From Polaribacter sp. ALD11 (GTDB lineage: Bacteria > Bacteroidota > Bacteroidia > Flavobacteriales > Flavobacteriaceae), in the NCBI RefSeq assembly GCF_002831685.1, contig NZ_CP025119.1:3372501-3436500 (forward strand): DNA of 64,000 nt, in the 5' to 3' direction. Both the position numbers and the translations under genes were made by a program. The notes under the pieces were generated by a model. That model saw nothing but the letters and a program-made list of their open reading frames with translations, made no database searches and had not been told where the DNA came from. Below are positions 2,003 through 14,957 of this stretch, one piece after another; positions within the stretch are counted from its first letter, which is position 1; every line of letters begins with the position of its first letter.

Positions 2003-5000
2003 TTAGTTTCTTATTTTTAAACGAATGCCTTTAGAGTGACTGCTAAATTCTGGAGCGTACATGCTCTGTATTGTAGTAATTCCGTTACTAAAGTCACCAG
2101 CATTATTTACTCTAACGTCATATTCGAAAACATAAACTCCTTTAGGTAAATGATCAAAAAAGAAATTTGTTGCAGCATCTCTTGTGCTTTGATAATAGCC
2201 TAAATTGTCTTGCCATTTGTATTTAGAAAGTACATTAATTGGTTCTACACCAGAAGCTCTCATGTCTTTCATGTGAATAAACTCCATGTCTCTGTCACTT
2301 CGTAATTCTATCCTTACTGTAATCAAATCACCTACTTTTAGTTCCGTTTCATTAGTAATTCCTCGCAGTTCTTTTCCTGTATCTGAATTTACTTTTAAGA
2401 ATAGCTTTTTATTCAATTTTAAAGGTGTTTCTGCAGAAGTAATTTTATCTAAATCTTCAAAATATTGCCAATACAAACTTCCCCAAGCAATTCCGTTTCC
2501 TTTTTTAGAAATAGTAACAGTTGCCATTTCTTTTTTAATATCACTACCATTCCAAGAAGTTTTAAAATAACCAGTTCCAGCTTCCACCTTTACGTTTTCT
2601 AATTTTGCAGGCTCAATTTTCTCATTACCAATTTTAATGTCTACCATTTCTGTGATAGAAACCCAATCACTTCCATTTAGTAACAAAGCATACACTGCTT
2701 CTGTAGTTGCTTTTGTAGTTTTCCAGCTGTTGGTTTGTTTATTTTTTAACAACCAAATTTTAAGATTATCAATTGTTTTTGTATCATTTTCTATCTCAGA
2801 GAAAACTTCAATTAATAAAGCTTGAGTTTCCACAGGAGCTTGATAGTATTTAAACCCAACTGTATTCGTTTTCCAATACATTCCTAATTCATCTGAGGTT
2901 ATAGAATTCTCTTTTAATGATTTTAGAATCTTGTTTGCTATCGTTTTTTTATCATTTCTAAAAAGCGATAAAGCAATTTGTCCTTTTGCGTATAAATTAT
3001 AATCATTCCAATATTTTTCTGATTGATTGCCATAGTATGAAACAGCTTTTTTAGTTTTTTCATTCATAGAGATATCATTATAAAAACTTCGCATGTATAA
3101 ATACTGAATAGCAAAATAACTCAAATGATTTTGTGCTAAAAATTCTTCATATTTCTTATTTCCTTTTTCATTTTTGATTCTTGCAGCACTGTCTAGAAGT
3201 TTTTCATAATGTTCTAAGATTTCATCATCGAGATATTTTACAGCCTTTTCAATCATTACTGTTGTTGATGAATTAAAGGTTGAAACTCCTAATTTTTGTA
3301 AATGTCCGAAGCCAGTAGCAATGTGTTGTGTAATAAAAGTGTTTTCGTAGCGACTGCCTTTAAACCAAGGAAACCCGCCAGAACTCATCTGAACATCTTG
3401 TAACTTGTGCAACGCTTTTTCTTGCTCATTCTTCATTTTATTCAAATTGAATAATAACGCAATTCTTTTCTTTTGTGCTGTTTCAGATTGCGCATCTCTT
3501 AACCAAGGAGTCTCCTGAATAATCAACGATTTTAATTCTTCATTTTTCTCTAAATTACTCAATAAAGCATCTGAAGATTTCCACGCATTAAAAACTTCCT
3601 GAATTCTAGGATTTGAATTCGCCACAAAACTTGCCAAGGTATTTGCATAGTATTTAGAGAAGGTTTGTTCTGCACATTCATAAGGATATTCCATTAAATA
3701 CGGCAACGACTGAATTGCGTACCAAACAGGGTTCGAGGTCATCTCTAACGTTAATTTGTGGTTTTTTAAAGTTGAAGAAGTATTGTTTTTTAATTTATCT
3801 AAGGTAAAGGTTTTGGTTTGGTTAGAACGAAGCCACATTGGTAAGGTTTCTGTAACCAACATTCTGTTAGATAAAACAGGTAAAACGTTTTGTTCTCCGT
3901 CAGAAAAATCACCAGCTTTTGCAACTATTTTGTACTGAACTGCTTGCACTGTTTGTGGTATCGATAAATACCAAGAAACATTTGTGTTTCCATCTGAATC
4001 AACAGTGAAGTTTTTGGTTGAATTTAAGTTTTCTAAATCAGCATTAATCTCTTTTCCTGTAATTGCATCTGTCAAAATTAATTTTGCAACACCAGATAAT
4101 TGATTGCTCGTTAAATTTGTGATTTTTGCACTCAATGTAATTTTATCACCTTCTCGTAAAAAACGTGGTGCGTTTGGCACCACCATTAATTCTTTCTGAG
4201 TAACGGTTTGCAATGTTTTAATAGACGACTTTAAGTCTTTGGTGTGAGCTAATAATTGTAATTTCCATTTGGTAAGTGCTTCTGGCATTGTAAAAGAAAA
4301 ACTTACTTTACCGTTTTTATCTGTTCTTAATTGTGGAAAAAAGAAGGCCGTCTCATTAAAGTTTTTACGTACTTGAATTCCATCAAAAGAAATTTCTTTA
4401 TTTTCTTCTGATACTTCAGTAACAGTTACAATTTCATCTAAATTACTTTCTACAGATTCCATAAGCGTTTCTTCAACCTCCATTGCATTTTCAACTATTT
4501 GAATTCCTGATGCTTTTTTAGAAAGACCTGGATGCCCTCTTAACAGATAAGACTTATTTACCCCAAACCTAAAACCAAACCAATTATAAGTAGCATTGTT
4601 TATAGATGGGTAATTTGTGTAATTTCTATTAGCATTTTTTATTTGAAAATTATTAATTCCAAAACTTTGGTTCGCGTTGCTCGTTTCATAAGAGTAATAG
4701 CTTCTTTTTTCTGAAATAGAATTAAATTCCCAATTATGTGACCTGAACTCATCTAAAGAAGCATCGTACATAGAAGCTAACATTTCTGCGGCAACTTTGT
4801 CATTTTTATCATCTTTAATGGTAAAACTCCAAGTTTCTTCTGCACCAGGTTGTAGTTTGTCCCTAAAAATATTCGTTTCAATTATTATGCTACTTTTTGG
4901 TTCTTCAGAAACATTAATTAGTAAACTTCCGCTTTTAAAATAGTTGTAATTTACAAAGTGATATTTTACAGCAAAACCACCAATGTCGTCTTTATTTACA

Positions 5001-8000
5001 GGTATTTTAATCGTTTTAGTCTTGTTGTTTAATTTTATAAAAGAAGTTTCAATAATTTTATGGTTCTTTTCAATTTGAACAATAACCGTAATGTCTTTTG
5101 AAGCAGAACCAATTTGTATTTCTACAACATCATCAACCTTATATTTATTTTTATTAGTATGAATAACAAACAACTTATTGTCTGCAACTTGTTTTTCTTT
5201 GGTTGAAAAAAGACTAAATTTATGCTCACCCCTAACTGCTTGTCCGAATGTGTCTTCACTTTCTAAAACAGCAATGTATTTACCAGAAAGCCAATTTTTC
5301 ATATTTTCTAATTGAATCTCCTTAGCATCTTCTGTATTAAAATCTTTTGAAAAGACCAACGCTCCTTTTTTCCAGTTTCCTCCATTTTCTTCCTCTTCTG
5401 AATACGGATCATTAGGAAATAATTTTCTGAATTCATTTTTAGAGATATCTTGATAATCGGGTGCAGACCAAGGTCTATCTCTTAAAGGATGTTTAGGTGC
5501 TTGTAATTTGTAAATTTTTACAGTTCCTTTTGCTGCAACAAACTCACCATTTAAGTTTTTAGTATCAATATTTAGAGTTGATTCTTGCTGGTTTTTATCG
5601 ATGTTTGCATTCATATAAATAGTTGCCAACAAAGAATGATACCCAACTCTTACAATAGTTGTAGCACTTCTTGTTTCTCCATTAACATCGGTAACATCTG
5701 CAGTTATTTCATAAGAAAAAATAGGGTTGTTTTCTTTGGAAACACTAGCATCTGGAATTGCTTTAAATTTTATAGAAAAAGCACCATCACTGTTAGATAC
5801 TGTTTCTCCGCTTGTTATTTCTTGCGCTTCAGAATTAAAATTGGGTCTTCTCCAATAATACCAACTAGGGTATTGCACTTTTCTATACACTCTGTAAACC
5901 ACTGTTGCGTCTGTAATATTCGCACCAGAAAAAGCTTTAGCAAAACCATGTATAGTAACAGCATCATTTACCTTTATACTTTCTGTAATTGGTTTAAATT
6001 CAGTTTTAAATTTGGGTCTTTTGTATTCCTCTACAGAGATTGTAGCATTATTATAGCTAAACTCAAAATAATTACGACTATCTTCCTCTAAACTTTCATC
6101 TATATTTATAGAATATTCTCCTGTTAGTCCGTTATTTGGAAGTATAAATTCTCCCGCAATAGTACCAAATTCATTCAGTTTTAAATCAAGCGTTTTCACC
6201 TCCTGATTATTAACATCTCTTAAAGTGATTTTTACAAATTCGTTCGCGAATATTTCAGATTTTTCTCCTTCCTTTTTTAATAAAATCGCTTTAAAATAGA
6301 CAATTTGTCCTGGTCTATAAATGCTTCTATCCGTAAAAATAAAAGGTTTTATAGTGGTTTTTTTATCAATATTATTGTTATTGTTTGAGGTCTGATTGTA
6401 CATATAAGAACTCCCGAAACTAGCTTTATCATTCTTCGTTGTTACTGTAATTTTTACATTAGAATACCGATTTGTACTTTTAAAAGAGGCAAAACCATTT
6501 TTGTCTGTTTTTAGGGTTTTATCTATCGGAGCGCTATATCTATGATTTGTATTATGGTTTTTAATATGGATTTCTGCATTTTTAATTGGCTTTCCATTAT
6601 TTCTATCAACAATCTGATAATTATAACTATCATCAAAAGTATTTGCAACCAAGGTTAAATTAGTCGTTTGAACTATTGTAGTTCCGTAAATTGAATCTTC
6701 TGTAATTTCCTTCTTTTCTGAAGCTAGAATTAAATACATTCCGCCTTCTAGTTTTGGAACAATTACTTCAGTAGTATGATTTAAATAATCGTTCTCATTT
6801 CTTAAAGTAGCATTCCAATTTTTAGTTTTTTCGAGATTTTTTAAGAATGAAATTTTTTCTTCACTTTTATATATTTTATTGAATTTTTCTTGTTGTATTT
6901 CTGATATCTTATAAGCAGTAAAATAAAGGTTATCTATGTTTTTATAAGAAACCAATACTCTAGAATTTGTATTGATAGGAATAAATTCTTCTGCTCTTAT
7001 AGAGAGCGAAGTATCTAAAATTTGAGCTTTTAAAATAGCGCATTTTTTTGCAGCGAAACTCTCTGGGAATTTTTTAATAATTTCATTAGAAAGTGCAAGT
7101 GCTTCTTTATTTTTGAAACGGTCTTTACTTTCTTTTGAATTTTGAGTTTCAGTTGCTTTTTGATGTGCTATTTTAGCAATTTCAAAAGTGTACAAACCAC
7201 CAGATTCATGATTTATATTCTTCTTTCTAGCGTTTTCTAACGTTTTTAGAAGTAAATCTTCTTTATTCTTAAAGGTTGCATTGTTCTTTACAAAATGTAA
7301 TCTTTCGATATCTATTGCTGCTAATGCATTTTTATTATCTTCCTTTATATGAAAAGCGATTAATTTTTGATATGTTCTTAAAGCATTCAATTGTAAAGAA
7401 ATACTGTCTTTTGAAATGATTTTTAATGTTGAAAAATGATCAGCATTATTTATAAAATCTACATTGTCTATTGTAAACTTATAAGAAGGTCTTGTAATAG
7501 CATTTTCTGAAGTTTTGTAGAATTCTAAAGCATTGTTTGCTAAAAAATCATATAAAGTTGGGCTGTAAGTTTTATTGTCTTTTTCTAGTTGAAGAATCTC
7601 TTCAAAATTACCAATATTTATTTTTTGAAGTTTTGTTTCATTAGCTAAAGAGGCATTAAAATAATAATGAATTTCTTTAAAAAGCGTGTTCAAATCCCAA
7701 GTTCTAAAATCACTAGCGCCAACTTTGTTTTCTGTCGATATTCTATTGTAGAACTTGTACCTGTTCTGAGTAAAATATTGCCAATACAAATTTGCCAATA
7801 CATTCTCTAATACATTTTTTGTAGGAAATTCACTTTTAGAAATATGGTGTTTAAATTGATGAATTACTTTTAACTGCGCGTCTTCTTCCAAAATTAAAGA
7901 AAATTTACTTTTAAAAAAAAGCGATTTAATAATTTGAGGAGCGTTTTCTTCTTTATTAGCTTTCACATAAATTTTTTCTACAAATGCTAAAGCAGATTTT

Positions 8001-8119
8001 GGTAAATTATCTACCTCTAACTTTTCTACTTCTGTCCAAAGTTTATCAAAGTTATTTTGTGAACTCATGGTTAAAGAAAATAAGATCATTGTTAAAATAG
8101 TTACTGTTGTCTTTTTCAT
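2003..8119 (-). CDS. Alpha-2-macroglobulin family protein with thioester motif
   Basis: Very large (2038 residues) secreted macroglobulin. Eukaryotic and bacterial relatives trap proteases: a thioester reacts covalently with the attacking protease. I chose the ATG at 8119, which begins a normal signal peptide (MKKTTVTILTMILFSLTMSSQ); the upstream alternative at 8143 is a TTG that would put extra residues before it. The order seen is: an N-terminal helical region of about 350 residues, MG domains with the DRSIYRPGQ motif near residue 600, the alpha-2-macroglobulin core (FFFPQLRTDKNGK) near 1250, thioester motif CAEQ at Cys1482, then the alpha-alpha toroid and a C-terminal MG/receptor-type domain. 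It is longer than the E. coli homologue (about 1650). It stands alone, with no penicillin-binding-protein partner beside it. Confidence 0.9.
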   Translation of the reverse strand: MKKTTVTILTMILFSLTMSSQNNFDKLWTEVEKLEVDNLPKSALAFVEKIYVKANKEENAPQIIKSLFFKSKFSLILEEDAQLKVIHQFKHHISKSEFPTKNVLENVLANLYWQYFTQNRYKFYNRISTENKVGASDFRTWDLNTLFKEIHYYFNASLANETKLQKINIGNFEEILQLEKDNKTYSPTLYDFLANNALEFYKTSENAITRPSYKFTIDNVDFINNADHFSTLKIISKDSISLQLNALRTYQKLIAFHIKEDNKNALAAIDIERLHFVKNNATFKNKEDLLLKTLENARKKNINHESGGLYTFEIAKIAHQKATETQNSKESKDRFKNKEALALSNEIIKKFPESFAAKKCAILKAQILDTSLSIRAEEFIPINTNSRVLVSYKNIDNLYFTAYKISEIQQEKFNKIYKSEEKISFLKNLEKTKNWNATLRNENDYLNHTTEVIVPKLEGGMYLILASEKKEITEDSIYGTTIVQTTNLTLVANTFDDSYNYQIVDRNNGKPIKNAEIHIKNHNTNHRYSAPIDKTLKTDKNGFASFKSTNRYSNVKITVTTKNDKASFGSSYMYNQTSNNNNNIDKKTTIKPFIFTDRSIYRPGQIVYFKAILLKKEGEKSEIFANEFVKITLRDVNNQEVKTLDLKLNEFGTIAGEFILPNNGLTGEYSINIDESLEEDSRNYFEFSYNNATISVEEYKRPKFKTEFKPITESIKVNDAVTIHGFAKAFSGANITDATVVYRVYRKVQYPSWYYWRRPNFNSEAQEITSGETVSNSDGAFSIKFKAIPDASVSKENNPIFSYEITADVTDVNGETRSATTIVRVGYHSLLATIYMNANIDKNQQESTLNIDTKNLNGEFVAAKGTVKIYKLQAPKHPLRDRPWSAPDYQDISKNEFRKLFPNDPYSEEEENGGNWKKGALVFSKDFNTEDAKEIQLENMKNWLSGKYIAVLESEDTFGQAVRGEHKFSLFSTKEKQVADNKLFVIHTNKNKYKVDDVVEIQIGSASKDITVIVQIEKNHKIIETSFIKLNNKTKTIKIPVNKDDIGGFAVKYHFVNYNYFKSGSLLINVSEEPKSSIIIETNIFRDKLQPGAEETWSFTIKDDKNDKVAAEMLASMYDASLDEFRSHNWEFNSISEKRSYYSYETSNANQSFGINNFQIKNANRNYTNYPSINNATYNWFGFRFGVNKSYLLRGHPGLSKKASGIQIVENAMEVEETLMESVESNLDEIVTVTEVSEENKEISFDGIQVRKNFNETAFFFPQLRTDKNGKVSFSFTMPEALTKWKLQLLAHTKDLKSSIKTLQTVTQKELMVVPNAPRFLREGDKITLSAKITNLTSNQLSGVAKLILTDAITGKEINADLENLNSTKNFTVDSDGNTNVSWYLSIPQTVQAVQYKIVAKAGDFSDGEQNVLPVLSNRMLVTETLPMWLRSNQTKTFTLDKLKNNTSSTLKNHKLTLEMTSNPVWYAIQSLPYLMEYPYECAEQTFSKYYANTLASFVANSNPRIQEVFNAWKSSDALLSNLEKNEELKSLIIQETPWLRDAQSETAQKKRIALLFNLNKMKNEQEKALHKLQDVQMSSGGFPWFKGSRYENTFITQHIATGFGHLQKLGVSTFNSSTTVMIEKAVKYLDDEILEHYEKLLDSAARIKNEKGNKKYEEFLAQNHLSYFAIQYLYMRSFYNDISMNEKTKKAVSYYGNQSEKYWNDYNLYAKGQIALSLFRNDKKTIANKILKSLKENSITSDELGMYWKTNTVGFKYYQAPVETQALLIEVFSEIENDTKTIDNLKIWLLKNKQTNSWKTTKATTEAVYALLLNGSDWVSITEMVDIKIGNEKIEPAKLENVKVEAGTGYFKTSWNGSDIKKEMATVTISKKGNGIAWGSLYWQYFEDLDKITSAETPLKLNKKLFLKVNSDTGKELRGITNETELKVGDLITVRIELRSDRDMEFIHMKDMRASGVEPINVLSKYKWQDNLGYYQSTRDAATNFFFDHLPKGVYVFEYDVRVNNAGDFSNGITTIQSMYAPEFSSHSKGIRLKIRN

Positions 8120-8290
8120 AATCAATAGATTTAATGTTTTCAAAGCACGTAAAAATAAAGTTGTAAATCAACTTTAAATTAGTAAACAAATAGATTTTAG
8201 ATGTAAAACCAACATTTAATTGAGTTTGGTTCTAAATATAATCAATATTGTAAAGAGCTTTTGTATTTTTACTTTTTTAAAATTTTTCAA

Positions 8291-9643
8291 ATGAACATTC
8301 ATTTTATTGCCATTGGCGGAAGCGCAATGCACAATCTTGCAATAGCTTTATACCAAAAAGGATACCAAGTTTCTGGAAGTGATGACACAATTCACAATCC
8401 GTCTAAATTTCGTTTAGAAAAATACGGATTATTACCAAAAGAATTTGGATGGTTTCCAGAAAAAATAGTATCAGATTTAGATGCTATTATTTTAGGAATG
8501 CATGCCAAAAAAGACAATCCAGAATTGCTGAAAGCACAAGCATTAGGATTGAAAATTTATTCTTATCCAGAGTTTTTATATGAGCAATCTAAAAATAAAA
8601 CACGGGTTGTTATTGGTGGTTCTCACGGGAAAACAACGATTACTTCTATGATTTTACATGTGTTAAATTACCATGAGAAAGAAGTAGATTACATGGTTGG
8701 CGCACAATTAGAAGGTTTTGAAACTATGGTTCATTTAACAGAAGAAAACGATTTTATTGTTTTAGAAGGAGATGAATATTTGAGTTCGCCAATAGATATG
8801 CGTCCCAAATTTCATTTATACAAACCTAATATCGCATTGTTAAGTGGTATTGCTTGGGATCATATCAATGTTTTTCCAACATTTGAAAACTACACAGATC
8901 AATTTAGAATTTTTACAAATTCTATGGTACATGGTGGTAGTATGATTTACAACGAAGAAGATGTAGTTGTTAAAGACGTTGTAGAATCTTCTGAAAATCA
9001 TATTAAGAAATATACTTATCAAACTCCGAAACATTTTATAGAAAACGGAATTACCTATTTAGAAACAGCTGAAGGAAACTTACCTTTAGAGGTTTTTGGA
9101 AACCATAACCTTCAAAACTTAGCAGGTGCAAAATGGATTTGTCAACATATGGGAATTGATGAAGATGATTTTTACGAAGCAATTGCAAGCTTTAGCGGCG
9201 CAAGCAAACGTTTAGAGAAGATTGCAGAAAACAATTCTACTGTAATCTTTAAAGACTTTGCACACAGCCCAAGTAAAGTTGCGGCAACTACAAGAGCAGT
9301 TAAGAATCAGTATACTAATAGAACTGTTTTAGCGTGTTTAGAACTGCATACGTATTCCAGCTTAAATGCTGAATTTTTAGCAGAATATAAAGGTGCTTTA
9401 GATCCGGCAGATAAGGCTGTGGTGTTTTATTCTCCTGATGCTGTAAAAATTAAACAATTAGATGCGGTGTCTGCAGACCAAATTGCAGCAGCATTTGAAA
9501 GAGATGATTTGATTATTTATACCAATCCAAAGGAGTTTAAAGATTTTTTATACTGTCAGAATTTAGAAAACACAGCGCTTTTATTAATGAGTTCTGGTAA
9601 TTACGGCGGATTGGATTTTGAGGAATTGAAAACTATGATTTAG
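8291..9643 (+). CDS. mpl: Mpl-type UDP-N-acetylmuramate:tripeptide ligase
   Basis: Mur-ligase family enzyme (450 residues) that in relatives joins recycled L-Ala-gamma-D-Glu-meso-DAP to UDP-MurNAc in the cytoplasm, returning cell-wall fragments to peptidoglycan synthesis. Seen: N-terminal Rossmann segment (IAIGGSAMHNLA), ATP P-loop GGSHGKTT at residues 109-116, EGDEYLSS and the HNLQNLAGA motif of Mur ligases, and the C-terminal DFAHSPSK motif. The ATG at 8291 begins the conserved MNIHFIAIGG; a TTG at 8261 only adds a non-conserved prefix. Its last 11 bases overlap the convergent nucleotidyltransferase gene. The murC-like alternative is less likely, since murC normally sits in the division cluster. 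Confidence 0.88.
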   Translation: MNIHFIAIGGSAMHNLAIALYQKGYQVSGSDDTIHNPSKFRLEKYGLLPKEFGWFPEKIVSDLDAIILGMHAKKDNPELLKAQALGLKIYSYPEFLYEQSKNKTRVVIGGSHGKTTITSMILHVLNYHEKEVDYMVGAQLEGFETMVHLTEENDFIVLEGDEYLSSPIDMRPKFHLYKPNIALLSGIAWDHINVFPTFENYTDQFRIFTNSMVHGGSMIYNEEDVVVKDVVESSENHIKKYTYQTPKHFIENGITYLETAEGNLPLEVFGNHNLQNLAGAKWICQHMGIDEDDFYEAIASFSGASKRLEKIAENNSTVIFKDFAHSPSKVAATTRAVKNQYTNRTVLACLELHTYSSLNAEFLAEYKGALDPADKAVVFYSPDAVKIKQLDAVSADQIAAAFERDDLIIYTNPKEFKDFLYCQNLENTALLLMSSGNYGGLDFEELKTMI

Positions 9644-10739
9644 TTTTTTTAATTCCTAATTGAATTAATTTTTCTCTTTGCCAATTCTTGTCTGTAGTTC
9701 GATTGATTAACCATTGTCTGTACTCTTTATTAAAAAGCGATTTCTTAATAATATTCAGTCTGGTTTTTAAAAATAGTTTTCTGCTTATTTTTAAGTATGC
9801 TCTCTTCGCTTTTTCTTGATGCTCTATGTCATTTAAAAATTTAGAGAGATATGCTTCCGTATTTTCAGTTTTCTTGTATTCTAAAGATTGAATGTTTCCA
9901 AAAACAACGTGACATGAAGCGGCAAAACAATTTAAAGGATCTTTTAAAGTTTCAAAGTGATCAAAAGCATTGATGGCAGGTGTTTTTTTAGAAAGTAAAA
10001 AAACATCATAGGCATTTCTTAAAGCTATATTTTTGTAGTGAATTCCGGCATCATTTATTTGTTTCGCGATGATAGATAGCGATAGTTGATTTCTAAAACT
10101 CATCACTTTCATTCCGTTTACTATTTGGGCGTCATTTTTAATGAGATTATAGTTGAATTCCAAAGCATATTTTTCTAATAGAAGTTCTTTATGCACTTCA
10201 ACAGCAGCAATTTTTTCTTTATGAACTAACCTTGGTTGATGTTTAAATTGAGGAAAACTATAACCTTCTTCTGTTACTTTGTTATAATTGTTATTTTGAA
10301 GCAATTGGAACGATTTTTCATAGTCTTTCATAGCAACAATAAAATCGATATCACCAACCATTCTCTCTGCAACATCGTCATACAAACCTTCTAATAAATT
10401 ACCTGTTCCTTTTAAGAAAATTGGGGTAATGTTATTGTCAACTAAAAGTTGATTAACTTCTTTGGCTTGTGCAATAATTTGTTCATTTCTTTCACGATTT
10501 AGACCTGTAATATGAACCATATAATTCACCAATTCTTCCGGTAAAAAATGAAGGAAGTCGGCTCTTTTTAGATTGCAATATAAAGCAGGGAAAACATAAT
10601 GTTCTGTACTTAACTTTACAACAGCATCCCAATCTATTTCTGTAGTTTTTAATTGGTTTTCAATTTCACTTTTGTTTTCTTCTTCTAGAGAAATAGTTAA
10701 ACATTTGGCAACAAAAAATAAGGTTTCTTTATATGTCAT
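9633..10739 (-). CDS. NTP_transf_5-type nucleotidyltransferase of the peptide cassette
   Basis: 368 residues. Resembles the uncharacterised nucleotidyltransferase family PF14907, which has a polymerase-beta-like active site. Seen: FLKGTGNLL at about 108-116, then ERMVGDIDFIV with the metal-binding pair Asp130/Asp132, then VEVHKELL near 170. Members transfer a nucleotide or sugar-nucleotide-derived group to an acceptor and occur as tailoring enzymes in some lasso-peptide clusters. Start: ATG at 10739, which overlaps the kinase gene stop by 11 bases and so points to translational coupling; a TTG at 10766 would only add nine residues. It is the last gene of the minus-strand cassette and converges on mpl. 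I infer it acts on the product of the small gene at 11956-12123; the acceptor is not shown by sequence. Confidence 0.8.
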   Translation of the reverse strand: MTYKETLFFVAKCLTISLEEENKSEIENQLKTTEIDWDAVVKLSTEHYVFPALYCNLKRADFLHFLPEELVNYMVHITGLNRERNEQIIAQAKEVNQLLVDNNITPIFLKGTGNLLEGLYDDVAERMVGDIDFIVAMKDYEKSFQLLQNNNYNKVTEEGYSFPQFKHQPRLVHKEKIAAVEVHKELLLEKYALEFNYNLIKNDAQIVNGMKVMSFRNQLSLSIIAKQINDAGIHYKNIALRNAYDVFLLSKKTPAINAFDHFETLKDPLNCFAASCHVVFGNIQSLEYKKTENTEAYLSKFLNDIEHQEKAKRAYLKISRKLFLKTRLNIIKKSLFNKEYRQWLINRTTDKNWQREKLIQLGIKKTKS

Positions 10740-11868
10740 TATTAAATATTTTAGAGACAGCTGCAATCATTTTTTTATTTTCTGAATACGTTATTTGGTA
10801 ACAATTTAAAGAATGAAACCAATCTAAGAATATTTGAGCATTTTCTTTTATAGGAGATAACCAAGAATCTGGTACTAATTGTTGAAAAGCATCAATTTTA
10901 GATATTTTATCGAATTTTAAATCAGCATCTTTTTCATATTTAATAAATACCAAATCATTGCAAGGTAAATGAGATAAGAAATCTTTATTATTAGGTTTTA
11001 AATATCTTACAATCTTATGTAACCTTTTAAAATGATACTCTGCAGAGCTTTCTAGTTCAGGGTAAAGTGGAAGTAAGGTTTCTAAACTGTTTTTTTTAAT
11101 AGAAATAGCTGCTGGAAAACTATAGACTTCTTTTTTAGTAGCATCTATGGGTACAAAATCATCTGCTAAGCAAGTAAAACCATTTCCTTGTAACAACGCT
11201 AAAGAAGTGCTTTTCCCATTACCAGAATCTCCTAGAAATAAGATTGATTTTTTACCATTTGAGACTGCAGATGCATGAAAAACACCCATCCATTCTTTTT
11301 CTTCTTTTTGATGAATTTTCTGAATCAATTCCATAGAAAATTTTCCTTGAAAAAAATGGATTTCTTTTTTATCCCAAGCACCAATAAAGTTCTTATCAAC
11401 ATAAAAAAAAACAAAATTATTCTTTAAGAAAACGGAGAAGGTAAAGGAGTTTTTGCTTTTATTTTCAACTTCTAAATGAGCAAATTTAGGATGTACCAGA
11501 TACAACTCATATTCTGAAGAGAATTCAAATTTAAAGATAAAATTATTTACTTTATAATATTTTGTAAACTCAAACTTTTTAGGTTTTTTAACATCCCTAT
11601 AATCATTAATAATTTCGTGGTTGTTTATTAATTTAGGAGGATAGAATTTTTTTTCTAGGTCTAGTACAAAATCTACTGTTTTGTCTAATGGAATTAACAG
11701 TTTTTTTGCCAAATCTGAAGCTATTTCTTCTGCCGAAATACCTTTACTTATTTTTTTTAAGATAGCTGCTGTTGTATTCTCTAAAATTAGATATTCATTG
11801 CTGTTTTTAAACCAAACAATAGTTTTGTCTTCTGCTGTTTTATATAAGAAATTTGTTTGTTTTTTCAT
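10729..11868 (-). CDS. PqqD-like domain fused to HPr-kinase-like P-loop kinase
   Basis: 379 residues. The first 75 or so (LILENTTAAILKKI, then a helix pair ending LDLEKKF) look like a PqqD/RiPP-recognition-element winged helix, the module that binds leader peptides. The C-terminal half is an HprK-related kinase: FHASAV at 197-202, Walker A GDSGNGKST at 213-221, and DD at 236-237, in the order and spacing of HprK-type serine kinases. Related HprK-like kinases phosphorylate lasso peptides (the paeninodin family). The middle (about 95-195) is a beta-rich sensor-like segment. A terminator hairpin lies between this gene and the small precursor gene upstream, and a weak -7-like TACTTTTA lies at 11882-11875. 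There is no lasso cyclase or peptidase nearby, so this is not a standard lasso cluster. Confidence 0.82.
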   Translation of the reverse strand: MKKQTNFLYKTAEDKTIVWFKNSNEYLILENTTAAILKKISKGISAEEIASDLAKKLLIPLDKTVDFVLDLEKKFYPPKLINNHEIINDYRDVKKPKKFEFTKYYKVNNFIFKFEFSSEYELYLVHPKFAHLEVENKSKNSFTFSVFLKNNFVFFYVDKNFIGAWDKKEIHFFQGKFSMELIQKIHQKEEKEWMGVFHASAVSNGKKSILFLGDSGNGKSTSLALLQGNGFTCLADDFVPIDATKKEVYSFPAAISIKKNSLETLLPLYPELESSAEYHFKRLHKIVRYLKPNNKDFLSHLPCNDLVFIKYEKDADLKFDKISKIDAFQQLVPDSWLSPIKENAQIFLDWFHSLNCYQITYSENKKMIAAVSKIFNNDI

Positions 11869-11907
11869 AAAGAATAAAAGTAGTTGTTTTATTAATTATA
11901 TAAAATA

Positions 11908-11935
11908 AAAAACGCCTCAAAATTGAGGCGTTTAT
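11908..11935 (-). terminator. Intrinsic terminator between precursor gene and kinase gene
   Basis: Inverted repeat with arms 11910-11920 and 11923-11933 (core GCCTCAA/TTGAGGC), with T-rich sequence following on the minus strand. It lies 20 bases past the small gene and 40 bases before the kinase ATG, so most transcripts would end after the peptide gene. Confidence 0.75.
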
Positions 11936-11955
11936 ATACAATATTAAAAGATTTA

Positions 11956-12123
11956 TTAGAATCCAGTTCCAGGAGCTTCTGGTGAAGAAGCTTGTGCTTT
12001 TTGCGGACTTAATATTAGGTAAGTACCAAGGGCTGTTAAAGCTGCATATTTACCATAGTTTCCTATTTTTTTAATTGCTTCTTTACGAGTAATCTCTTGG
12101 TTTTCCTTTATTTGTTTTTTCAT
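11956..12123 (-). CDS. 55-residue secreted-peptide precursor, Tat-like leader, 10-residue tail
   Basis: Small gene, ATG 12123 to TAA 11956. The charged N-terminus (MKKQIKENQE) leads into ITRKEAIKKIG, which resembles a twin-arginine motif with Arg-Lys in place of Arg-Arg. A hydrophobic core follows (KYAALTALGTYLIL), then SPQKAQA, a good signal-peptidase I site, leaving only SSPEAPGTGF. Thus almost the whole product is leader and the mature peptide would be a decapeptide. It starts 26 bases after the T9SS protein gene and is followed by a terminator, a PqqD-HprK kinase and a nucleotidyltransferase. I infer a ribosomally made, modified peptide or a secreted signal. Alternatives: an orphan signal-peptide-like protein anchored in the membrane, or a remnant. 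Codon use and exact framing support a real gene; the function is unproven. Confidence 0.72.
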   Translation of the reverse strand: MKKQIKENQEITRKEAIKKIGNYGKYAALTALGTYLILSPQKAQASSPEAPGTGF

Positions 12124-12149
12124 AATATCTTGTTTTTTAAAATCTAGTA

Positions 12150-14957
12150 TTATTCTAAAATGATTTTTTTACTAATTACACCTTTTTCTGTTTTCACTTT
12201 TGCTAAATAAATTCCAGAAGATAATTTAGAAAGCGAAATTTCTTTATTTCCATTAGATGTAAACGAAGTACTCATCATTTCTTTTCCTAGAATATTAAAT
12301 AAAGAGATCGAAGTTTTACCTTGTGGTAATCCTGCTATTTTTAAAGTAGAAGCATTCGTTTTATAAATACTTACACTATTCAAAATCACATCTTCTGTAG
12401 ATAATGTTTTTTGAGCTGTGTGTAGATAAAAACGGCCAACACCATTTAAAGCTTCTGTTAGTGTTGTTTTGTATTTACTATTCGTTTCGTCTAAACGTGT
12501 AAAAGTATTTGTTAATCTATCTTCTAAAAATACTTTTAATTCTGTTGGTAAGTTTAAAGCTTCAGCAGAAAAAGTAATTTCTTTTCCAATTGTTGCATTT
12601 ACTCCAATAGGAACTATCATTGATTCTAAATTTGAATTTGGTAAAGATTGACGCATAAAATCTACCCCTTCATTATTAGACACTAATTGAGTGTAAACAC
12701 TAAAAGCAGTATCTTCACCTGTAAATGTACCTACATCAAAACGAGGATCTAACCCTGTTGTTTTATTATCTGAATAATTAACTTTTGTTGTTTTTATACT
12801 AGTACCATCATTCATTGATAATGTAATGGTTGCTGTTGAAGAACCTTTGTATAATGTTACACCTGTTTGATTACTTAGTTTAGAGGCATCAATTGTAAAA
12901 TTATCTGCAGTTGAATTGGCTGCGTTTACAAAGAAACCTTGCCCAGGGTGAATATAGTCAGTTCCAGTTAAAGCTGTATAGGCTGTTCCATTCCATATAT
13001 AAACCATTTCATGTGTATCAGTTAAGTTTGCTGCATTATCCGAAATTAAATCACTAACAAGAATATATGAAGAATAAGGGTTTCCTACTAAATTCCAATT
13101 ATTAGAATCCTGAGTTATAGAGCTTGTTAAATTATCTGTTTTAACAGTACCTGTAAAACTAATATAACCGTTAGTCGTTCCTTCTCTTTTAAAAGAATAA
13201 CCTTTTCCAGCTGTAAATGCCCCAGAGTTCGCAGCATCTGTTGCGTATACCCAATCACCATCTATATCTATAGTGTTTGTATAAGTACCGATAGCAATAT
13301 TTGTACCTGTTCCATTTGTTACATCAATCTCATTATTACTAATCCACGTTCCATCATAAGTTGCCCCAATAACAGGACTAGATAATAAATGCCAATTTGT
13401 GTCATTTGCTAATACTTGATAAGTTACATTTCCAGTAGAAGCACCAGAAACTTTTAATGAACCACCAGAGTTTATTGTTAAACCATCCGTTTCTGTAATT
13501 GTTAAGTTGTTGGTTACTGCACCTGTTGTTGCTCCAATAATTGGAGCTGTAGCTACATCAGGAATAACTACATTATCTGTAGCAGTTGGTATTGTATTTG
13601 TATCCCAATTGGCTGCTGTATTCCAATCTGAACTATCATTTCCATTCCAAGTTACAGTAGATGAAAAAGCTGTCCATGAAATATCATCAACAATTACTTG
13701 TTTAGTTAAAATGTTTCTAATTTCAATAATTATGTCTCCAGTAATATTAATATTATCAACTGTAAATGTATATGCATCTTTATCATCAGCATCATCAAAA
13801 ATAACAGAAGTTCCTTTAGAAATATTATTAATAAATAATTCTACTTGCCTGTTACCGCTTCCAGTAAATCCTTTATATAATTTTACGGAAAAATCACCAA
13901 TACCACCAGAAATAATGCTTGAAGTAACTTTACTACTATTACTTGCATCTCTAAGCATTAGTGCTTTTCCTATAATTCCTGCACTGTTAGCATCACTATC
14001 TTCATTTCTAGATTGTATATAAGACCAAGTAATAGCATTATTACCTAAAAAACTACCATCTGCATAAGAAGCTGTAGCAGCAGAGTTCGTGAAATCTTCA
14101 ACCATAAAAACGGGAGCTTCATCATCTGTAATTGTAACTGTATGTGTACTTTGAGAAATAACTAAACCAGTAACACTACTTGATTCTGTTATTGTAAAAA
14201 TTACTGTTTCAGTATCAGTATCAGCATCATCTTTAATGTCGAAAGTTATATTTTGAGAACCATCAGCAGTAAAAGATAGTGCTGTTGGTGATGTGAAAAT
14301 AAAATCTGCTGCTGCTGCTGTTCCTCCAGTAACATTAACATTTATATCAATTTGAGTTCCAGAATAATTACTAACAGTTATAGGGATATTTGAACTTGTA
14401 AAAGTTACATTAGTTTCTGTTTCAGAGCTAGTTGCTGTATCAAAACCAATGGTTGGTGCTATAGTAGCAGATGTATAAGTAACTGAAAAGCTGTCTACAT
14501 AAATTCTATTACCAGAACTTGAATCTTTTTGAAAGAATTCAACTTTTGATGTCGAGTTTATACCACTTATTGTATATGTGCTACCTGCTGATAGGTTCGT
14601 TTGTGCACCTCCATCTACAGTATAACCTGCAGGCCCCGTTTTGCTAGATGCATTTATAACAACATCTGTAATAGTTACGCCATTACTAGCATAAATTATA
14701 ATTGAGCCACCTTTAGTTGCATTTTGATATAATCTCAATTGCCCCGTATTTAATGCAGGATTTGATGTACCAGTATTTTTAAATGAGCCAAACCCAATAT
14801 TTGTGTCTAACGTAATACCTGGTGAAGCTTCATTTAGTCCAGTTACGGCTCCTCCATCTGAAAAATTATAACTAACAGTTGTTTGTCCAAAGATATTAGT
14901 TGTAATTATTGCAAATACAAATAGCATTGCAATTTTAAAAAAGTTTTTTTGTTTCAT
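12150..14957 (-). CDS. T9SS-exported surface protein with Calx-beta-like and C-terminal sorting domains
   Basis: 935 residues, secreted. Seen: signal peptide (cut near NIFGQ), an N-terminal jelly-roll-like segment rich in Thr/Ser/Gly, a Calx-beta-like repeat at roughly 165-280 ending HTVTITDDE, a second beta-rich segment (FMVEDFTNSAATASYADGSF onward), a WNGNDSSDWNTAANW segment common in flavobacterial surface proteins, and the T9SS type A sorting tail: SIYKTNASTLKIAGL, then ISLFNILGKEM, SLSKLSSGIYLAKV and terminal KKIILE. The tail directs export through the type IX machine and attachment to lipopolysaccharide. No catalytic domain is evident; an adhesin or matrix role is likely. It is the first gene of the minus-strand run that continues into the 55-residue precursor. 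Confidence 0.85.
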   Translation of the reverse strand: MKQKNFFKIAMLFVFAIITTNIFGQTTVSYNFSDGGAVTGLNEASPGITLDTNIGFGSFKNTGTSNPALNTGQLRLYQNATKGGSIIIYASNGVTITDVVINASSKTGPAGYTVDGGAQTNLSAGSTYTISGINSTSKVEFFQKDSSSGNRIYVDSFSVTYTSATIAPTIGFDTATSSETETNVTFTSSNIPITVSNYSGTQIDINVNVTGGTAAAADFIFTSPTALSFTADGSQNITFDIKDDADTDTETVIFTITESSSVTGLVISQSTHTVTITDDEAPVFMVEDFTNSAATASYADGSFLGNNAITWSYIQSRNEDSDANSAGIIGKALMLRDASNSSKVTSSIISGGIGDFSVKLYKGFTGSGNRQVELFINNISKGTSVIFDDADDKDAYTFTVDNINITGDIIIEIRNILTKQVIVDDISWTAFSSTVTWNGNDSSDWNTAANWDTNTIPTATDNVVIPDVATAPIIGATTGAVTNNLTITETDGLTINSGGSLKVSGASTGNVTYQVLANDTNWHLLSSPVIGATYDGTWISNNEIDVTNGTGTNIAIGTYTNTIDIDGDWVYATDAANSGAFTAGKGYSFKREGTTNGYISFTGTVKTDNLTSSITQDSNNWNLVGNPYSSYILVSDLISDNAANLTDTHEMVYIWNGTAYTALTGTDYIHPGQGFFVNAANSTADNFTIDASKLSNQTGVTLYKGSSTATITLSMNDGTSIKTTKVNYSDNKTTGLDPRFDVGTFTGEDTAFSVYTQLVSNNEGVDFMRQSLPNSNLESMIVPIGVNATIGKEITFSAEALNLPTELKVFLEDRLTNTFTRLDETNSKYKTTLTEALNGVGRFYLHTAQKTLSTEDVILNSVSIYKTNASTLKIAGLPQGKTSISLFNILGKEMMSTSFTSNGNKEISLSKLSSGIYLAKVKTEKGVISKKIILE

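What the first reader, a model, noticed from the sequence alone, without database searches (positions are those of the whole stretch)
9633..14957. Candidate undescribed peptide-modification cassette: precursor, PqqD-HprK kinase, nucleotidyltransferase
Seen: a 55-codon gene followed on the same strand by a PqqD-like domain fused to an HprK-like kinase and then an NTP_transf_5 enzyme with coupled stop and start. Known: RRE/PqqD domains bind leaders of ribosomal peptides, and HprK-like kinases and nucleotidyltransferases tailor some lasso peptides. Here no lasso cyclase, peptidase, radical SAM enzyme or ABC exporter is present. Inference: a minimal system that phosphorylates and/or nucleotidylates a short peptide in the cytoplasm, then exports it by the Tat or Sec route.
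Basis: partly seen in the sequence, partly recalled or inferred. Interest (0 to 1): 0.82.

Follow-up and report, generated by a model that had tools for sequence, protein, structure and literature searches.

The report
Phosphopeptide cassette paired with surface adhesins
Some flavobacteria encode a tiny, probably exported peptide beside large adhesin-like surface proteins, and keep a kinase and a nucleotidyltransferase that probably tag one unchanging serine in these peptides, which hints at a peptide-modification system that serves the cell surface rather than making an antibiotic.

Summary
In detail: on the minus strand lie a 935-aa type IX secretion (T9SS) protein, a 55-aa peptide, an RRE(PqqD)-HprK-like kinase and an NTP_transf_5 protein overlapping the kinase by 11 nt. 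The precursor reading is well supported. In 120 family genomes kinase and peptide occur in the same 12. One core serine (Ser47) is Ser in 76 of 76 and 241 of 241 aligned peptides. The kinase keeps the His-Lys-Asp-Asp set of lasso-peptide kinases, and its model matches lasso RREs and HPr kinases.

The genome holds five peptide genes, each 18-28 bp after a T9SS protein with a RemA/RemZ-like C-terminal module; only one adjoins the enzymes. Same-genus genomes carry up to 17 peptides but usually one kinase. Module, peptide and kinase are absent together in four genomes. Best reading: leader-guided serine (poly)phosphorylation, then NTase tailoring, of a peptide acting with surface adhesins. Closest known: linear polyphosphorylated peptides of Bacillota. 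Modification, export route and adhesin contact are inferred.

The parts
12150..14957 (-). T9SS-secreted adhesin-like protein (935 aa), first gene of the unit
   Evidence: TIGR04183 T9SS type A sorting domain E=7.4e-12; Pfam Por_Secre_tail E=8.3e-9. 'Adhesin-like' is inferred from RemA/RemZ similarity
12393..13412 (-). 340-aa C-terminal module before the T9SS sorting domain; tracks with the peptide
   Evidence: E<1e-18 in 13 of 120 family genomes: the 12 with kinase and peptide, plus G105; a further 20 genomes match only weakly, E 6e-8 to 8e-4. A profile of 69 such C-termini (module plus sorting domain) matches F. johnsoniae RemA (5e-41) and RemZ (5e-38)
12153..12392 (-). T9SS C-terminal sorting domain region
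11956..12123 (-). 55-aa precursor peptide gene, 26 bp after the T9SS gene
   Evidence: relatives; pN/pS
11989..12123 (-). Leader/signal segment, residues 1-45, containing ITRKEAIKKIG and ending SPQKAQA
   Evidence: R13, A16, L38, P40 invariant in 76 of 76; 240, 241, 241 and 240 of 241. Cleavage after AQA is my inference
11959..11988 (-). Predicted core decapeptide SSPEAPGTGF
   Evidence: sequence and length vary in relatives except Ser47
11983..11985 (-). Ser47, predicted modification site (+2 after AQA)
   Evidence: Ser in 76 of 76 and 241 of 241; modification not shown
11910..11933 (-). Intrinsic-terminator-like hairpin between peptide and kinase
   Evidence: 10-bp stem plus T-run; but the scan found 2 such sites in 5.8 kb against 2.0 in shuffles. 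Folding z=-4.45. Terminator-like within 110 nt after 22 of 36 fetched peptides, 0 of 38 mononucleotide shuffles
10729..11868 (-). RRE(PqqD)-HprK-like kinase, 379 aa
   Evidence: AlphaFold2 mean pLDDT 91; fold matches; H198, K219, D236, D237 invariant in 50 sequences
11641..11868 (-). N-terminal RRE/PqqD-like domain, residues 1-76
   Evidence: 5v1u and 6jx3 matched over 71-74 columns (query range not printed). Placed here from three strands and three helices in residues 7-75 and the WgkC match at 5-76
10732..11298 (-). HprK-like catalytic domain, residues 191-379
9633..10739 (-). NTP_transf_5 nucleotidyltransferase-like protein, 368 aa
   Evidence: PF14907 E=4.4e-35; K110-G111, G129-D130-x-D132, E181, H183 invariant in 12 sequences

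Best explanation
A leader-guided peptide-phosphorylation system that serves T9SS adhesins. The fused RRE domain of the kinase binds the conserved ITRKEAIKK leader. The HprK-like domain puts one or more phosphates on the single invariant Ser (Ser47), and the NTP_transf_5 enzyme then adds a nucleotide or sugar to that phosphate. The leader is also a signal peptide (RK-type Tat-like, or Sec), so the modified ~10-residue core is released in the periplasm after AQA. There, or at the surface, it acts together with the RemA/RemZ-like protein encoded directly upstream. One kinase-NTase pair modifies all the dispersed peptides of a genome. Shown here: gene order, co-occurrence, invariant Ser, catalytic residues, predicted folds, pairing with T9SS proteins. 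Inferred: leader binding, phosphorylation, NTase chemistry, export route, cleavage, adhesin contact.
For: Co-occurrence: kinase and peptide in the same 12 of 120 family genomes and neither in 108 (Fisher p about 1e-16 ignoring phylogeny). In 96 same-genus genomes 89 have both, 4 neither, 1 peptide only, 2 kinase only. The module at E<1e-18 (cut set after seeing the gap) is in 13 of 120, those 12 plus G105, and was not found in the 4 genomes lacking both. Architecture: of 28 named-genome kinase loci 27 have the peptide upstream, 28 the NTase downstream, 25 a match to module plus sorting domain upstream. Kinase and NTase share one 737-aa frame in G143 (L059). Pairing: 5 of 5 peptides in the own genome lie 18-28 bp after a module protein. 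In G121 and G131, of 30 fetched peptide loci (of 33 matches) 28 have a module/sorting-domain match upstream, 25 within 35 bp; 26 of the 30 have it near full length. Up to 17 peptides per genome against usually one kinase. Ser47 invariant. His-Lys-Asp-Asp, essential in lasso-peptide kinases (PMC9266682, passages), is invariant here. The LPP kinase of Bacillota modifies Ser3 of a core beginning AQS; S3A, S3T and S3Y are not phosphorylated (PMC13381572 section 7).
Against: No modified product has been seen, and leader binding was not modelled. The RRE match has a modest Foldseek E-value, 0.005-0.01. One G131 peptide has no T9SS gene nearby (L092), one module in the own genome has no peptide next to it (L051), and G042 has six modules to one peptide, so pairing is not strictly one to one. 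G135 and G168 keep the kinase without detectable peptide or module, and G128 keeps peptide and module without the kinase; all three are 90-93% complete. The kinase scores far under the HprK_rel_A cut-off. 0 of 311 peptides have the Tat RR pair. In the LPP study deleting the NTase had no visible effect. The 241 relatives are the best-listed of two searches, and relatedness inflates the conservation counts.
Confidence: 0.62

Rival explanations
1. An ordinary RiPP: the modified peptide is a diffusible signal or antimicrobial, and the T9SS protein is only a genomic neighbour with which it is co-transcribed.
For: RRE-like domain, kinase, NTase and a precursor with conserved leader and variable tail are RiPP hallmarks; one peptide copy stands alone.
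Against: Peptide and module sit side by side at several separate places per genome and both are missing with the kinase in four genomes. Of nine neighbouring window genes scanned by Pfam, seven have a family and none is a leader peptidase or ABC exporter; two have none.
Confidence: 0.18
2. The peptide is a small assembly factor or stalk subunit of the T9SS protein, and the kinase acts on that protein or something else; the peptide is not its substrate.
For: Module and peptide pair mostly away from the kinase in the genomes read.
Against: Peptide and kinase occur in exactly the same 12 of 120 genomes; the kinase carries a leader-binding type domain; the peptide holds one invariant Ser in an otherwise variable core.
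Confidence: 0.12
3. The small ORF is just a Tat-type signal remnant or truncated secreted protein, and its adjacency is chance.
For: Sources label a few relatives as twin-arginine signal proteins.
Against: Conservation through to the C-terminus in 241 aligned relatives, low pN/pS, same-genome co-occurrence with the kinase.
Confidence: 0.03

Closest known systems
Linear polyphosphorylated peptides (LPP) of Bacillota (PMC13381572, 2026; passages and sections 6 and 7 read)
   Same: Linear precursor with conserved N-terminus and variable C-terminus; RRE; HprK-like kinase; NTP transferase; Ser close to the core N-terminus (AQS...); the studied cluster lies among polysaccharide genes.
   Different: Here the RRE is fused to the kinase, the leader is itself a hydrophobic signal-like segment with an R-K motif, no SpI peptidase or MsbA exporter was seen beside the cassette, and the partner is a T9SS protein with several dispersed peptide copies.
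Paeninodin/pseudomycoidin lasso-peptide tailoring (PadeK/ThcoK, PsmK/PsmN; PMC9266682, passages read)
   Same: HprK-like kinase with His-Lys-Asp-Asp; NTase partner linked to hexose on phospho-Ser (PsmN).
   Different: No lasso cyclase or leader peptidase seen beside it; those kinases modify a C-terminal Ser, here the Ser is two residues after the predicted cleavage site.
RemA/RemZ gliding adhesins of Flavobacterium johnsoniae (PMC10994853, passages read)
   Same: A profile of 69 C-termini like this one (module plus sorting domain, 423 positions) aligns at positions 67-423 with RemA and 62-422 with RemZ; T9SS type A sorting.
   Different: No peptide or kinase partner is mentioned in the passages I read; the module here belongs to a closer subfamily that tracks with the peptide.
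HPr-rel-A system (TIGR04352 HprK_rel_A; system name recalled)
   Same: HprK-like kinase with PqqD-like and nucleotidyltransferase partners (partners recalled).
   Different: 53 bits against a cut-off of 200; PqqD-like domain fused here.

Membership tests
RiPP (general) | Genetically encoded precursor with conserved leader and variable core, conserved beside its enzymes | tested here: met
RiPP (general) | Leader-binding RRE domain | tested here: met
   fold match to lasso B1 RREs 5v1u and 6jx3, TM by target 0.69-0.71, Foldseek E 0.005-0.01; binding itself not tested
RiPP (general) | Demonstrated post-translational modification of the core | not testable with these tools
   needs mass spectrometry
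LPP (Bacillota) | HprK-like kinase and NTP transferase beside the precursor | tested here: met
LPP (Bacillota) | Discrete RRE gene | tested here: not met
   the RRE-like domain is the N-terminus of the kinase
LPP (Bacillota) | Leader motif YxxPxVLxHQxIxFETxxS, or the lasso-type [YW]xxPx core of it | tested here: not met
   0 of 311 distinct peptides for either pattern
LPP (Bacillota) | Archaeal-type SpI peptidase and MsbA-like transporter in the cluster | tested here: not met
   not among Pfam hits of nine neighbouring window genes, two of which have no family; not among the 25 of 49 families shown for 100 flanking ORFs of relatives. The rest of the genome was not searched
LPP (Bacillota) | Polyphosphorylated Ser near the core N-terminus | tested here: inconclusive
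   Ser invariant at a similar place; phosphate not shown
Lasso-peptide kinase | His-Lys-Asp-Asp catalytic set | tested here: met
   H198, K219, D236, D237 invariant in A5; motif from PMC9266682; position-by-position match is my reading
Lasso peptide cluster | Macrolactam cyclase (C) and leader peptidase (B2) | tested here: not met
   none among Pfam hits of nine neighbouring window genes, two of which have no family
Tat substrate | Twin-arginine motif | tested here: not met
   0 of 311 have [ST]RR; 307 of 311 have the R-K/N form; TatC is in 96 of 96 genus genomes, so the route is not excluded
T9SS type A substrate (upstream gene) | C-terminal sorting domain | tested here: met
   TIGR04183 45.1 bits, cut-off 23; fold match
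TIGR04352 HprK_rel_A | Score over the curated cut-off | tested here: not met
   53.1 against 200 bits

The most novel reading that the evidence does not exclude
A RiPP-type peptide used as a structural cofactor: RemA-like surface adhesins are issued with their own short peptide whose phospho-, nucleotidyl- or glycosyl-phospho-serine is needed to anchor, cap or display the adhesin (for example by linking it to surface polysaccharide), with one cytoplasmic enzyme pair serving up to 17 peptide genes.
Probability: 0.3. Interest if true: 0.88.

Novelty: new variant of a known kind. Interest (0 to 1): 0.76.

Why it matters
RiPPs are mostly studied as diffusible products. Here a RiPP-like modification module is wired to genes for T9SS surface proteins in flavobacteria, with thousands of homologous peptides in databases (7809 of 7997 scored at E<=0.01). 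If the link holds, it gives a new covalent chemistry on T9SS-related surface components, a candidate function for the HprK-NTase pairs of lasso and LPP clusters, and a directly testable invariant serine.

Tried and rejected
Chance or artefactual ORF: rejected. Peptide fused to the T9SS protein in G121 (L024, open frame 2260 aa): rejected, the upstream stretch is masked and reads as X. TatC presence as a test of Tat export: uninformative, 96 of 96. Kinase outside the family: of 345 phylum genomes 11 matched at 1e-10; 5 full-length, all in this family, 6 weak HprK-region matches outside it (five first-look candidates scored in each listed genome, so more distant ones could be missed). The outer-membrane barrel downstream of the NTase as a core part: rejected for this window; it follows the cassette in 25 of 28 named loci plus L018 but in none of the ten same-genus loci tested (L008, L054-L062), nor in L009, L010, L013, L019, L020; its broad profile hits 109 of 120 genomes, mostly in larger proteins. 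Polysaccharide-locus association: 17 of 44 loci by a loose test, 10 of 44 with a NusG-like gene, 8 of those 10 Gelidibacter, so possibly one lineage. Module fold: the listed PDB matches cover the sorting domain, which does not show that the rest is a new fold. Terminators: the region has no more such sites than shuffles. Paper searches for this system listed no description of it; this covers only the open-licence library and those terms.

Rows dropped: L011, L012, L016, L017 as duplicates of L064, L080, L076, L090; 7 duplicate sequences and 7 of 83 distinct peptides left out of the 76 as fragments, broken, or without an ATG start in my parse (listed). In one search, 100 of 192 flanking ORFs were used.
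Full report
What is there. On the minus strand, in transcription order, lie a 935-aa protein with a T9SS type A sorting domain (12150-14957), a 55-aa peptide gene 26 bp later (11956-12123), a terminator-like hairpin (11910-11933), a 379-aa kinase (10729-11868) and a 368-aa NTP_transf_5 protein (9633-10739; PF14907 E=4.4e-35), whose start overlaps the kinase end by 11 nt. The window is part of a 3.57-Mb single-contig genome; named nearest relatives in the protein searches are mostly Polaribacter.

The peptide is the likely substrate. In 120 genomes of the family, drawn about one per genus, the kinase is in 12 and the peptide in 12, the same 12. In 96 genomes of the genus, 89 have both, 4 neither (G133, G172, G188, G196), 1 only the peptide (G128) and 2 only the kinase (G135, G168). 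In 28 kinase loci from named genomes (Psychroserpens, Gelidibacter, Lutibacter, Winogradskyella, Bizionia and others), the peptide is upstream in 27 (two of them broken by frameshift; the 28th is cut by the contig end), the NTase is downstream in 28 (in L073 with further cassette genes between), and a match to module plus sorting domain is upstream in 25. Order is not fixed everywhere: in G003 (L020) the NTase precedes the kinase, and in G107 kinase and NTase lie together while both peptide genes lie elsewhere. In G143 kinase and NTase share one 737-aa frame (L059). Of 76 full-length distinct peptides, R13, A16, L38, P40 and Ser47 never vary. In an alignment of the window peptide with the 120 best-listed relatives of each of two searches, Ser47 is Ser in 241 of 241, A16 in 241 and R13 in 240. 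The rest of the core varies in sequence and in length, from 9 to roughly 55 residues. pN/pS is 0.17-0.20, measured on a 36-codon stretch picked by a conserved pattern and so biased low.

The genome has five peptide genes. Each lies 18-28 bp after a large protein that ends in the same kind of module plus T9SS sorting domain; only the one in the window is followed by the enzymes. In two relatives with 16 and 17 peptide matches I examined 30 of 33: 28 have a module/sorting-domain match upstream, 25 within 35 bp, 26 near full length. The exceptions are L023, a lone peptide between a folE-like and a sigma-factor-like gene (my reading of the ORFs), and L024, where the upstream DNA is masked. With the 340-aa module as query, 33 of 120 family genomes match at E<=0.001; there is a gap between 1e-18 and 6e-8, and the 13 genomes above it are the 12 with kinase and peptide plus G105. 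The module is not found in the four genus genomes lacking both, nor in G135 and G168; it is present in G128, in the own genome and in 8 of 8 other peptide-positive genomes tested. A profile of 69 C-termini (module plus sorting domain) matches Flavobacterium johnsoniae RemA (5e-41, positions 67-423 of 423) and RemZ (5e-38, 62-422). [quoted passage not shown] Pairing is not strictly one to one: G042 has six modules and one peptide, and the own genome has one module without a peptide beside it (L051).

Mechanism. Shown: anatomy, co-occurrence, catalytic residues, predicted folds, invariant Ser. Inferred: the RRE binds the leader, and the kinase phosphorylates Ser47. In the Bacillota LPP family a kinase of this type adds up to four phosphates to Ser3 of a core starting AQS, and Thr or Tyr there is not phosphorylated (PMC13381572 section 7); many peptides here also read AQS at the similar place. 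The NTase step follows the PsmN precedent, where hexoses appear on the phosphorylated Ser (PMC9266682), but deleting the LPP NTase changed nothing visible. Cleavage after AQA is predicted from the A-x-A pattern. Export: 307 of 311 peptides have an R-K/N pair where Tat signals have R-R, and none has [ST]RR. Some source names call relatives Tat-signal proteins. The c-region lysine (K42 in 208 of 241) is, from my own knowledge, more typical of Tat than of Sec signals. I leave the route open. A terminator-like hairpin follows 22 of 36 fetched peptide genes (0 of 38 mononucleotide shuffles), although the window region as a whole has no more such sites than shuffles. If real, it would make T9SS-gene and peptide mRNA more abundant than kinase mRNA where the enzymes follow.

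Relation to known systems. It works like LPP and lasso-kinase tailoring. It is not an LPP member by the tests run: no discrete RRE, no LPP leader motif (0 of 311), no such peptidase or transporter seen beside it. I file it as a new variant of phosphorylated-peptide RiPP systems, coupled to T9SS surface proteins. I found no account of it in the library with the searches listed in Tried and rejected. What the modified peptide does for the adhesin is unknown; anchoring, capping or ligand roles are guesses.

Noticed in passing
L064:9434-10015 and equivalents in 25 of 28 loci L064-L091, plus L018: A conserved ~190-aa stand-alone outer-membrane-barrel-like gene follows the NTase in Psychroserpens, Gelidibacter and Winogradskyella relatives but in none of the ten same-genus loci tested; possible surface receptor or partner.
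   Followed up: partly
L013, L067-L071, L075, L078-L080: A NusG-like gene, often with nucleotide-sugar genes, lies within 7 kb of the cassette in 10 of 44 loci, 8 of them Gelidibacter, echoing the polysaccharide setting of an LPP cluster.
   Followed up: partly
L092:8146-8334: A lone peptide copy without a T9SS gene beside it, between a folE-like and a sigma-factor-like gene.
   Followed up: no
L051:5914-7767 (own genome) and L063:6171-8036 (G105): Module-bearing T9SS-type proteins without a recognisable peptide gene next to them.
   Followed up: no
window 11910-11933: Terminator-like hairpin between peptide and kinase, a possible attenuator setting the precursor-to-enzyme ratio.
   Followed up: partly
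window 2003-8143: 2046-aa bacterial alpha-2-macroglobulin family protein near the cassette; apparently ordinary.
   Followed up: no
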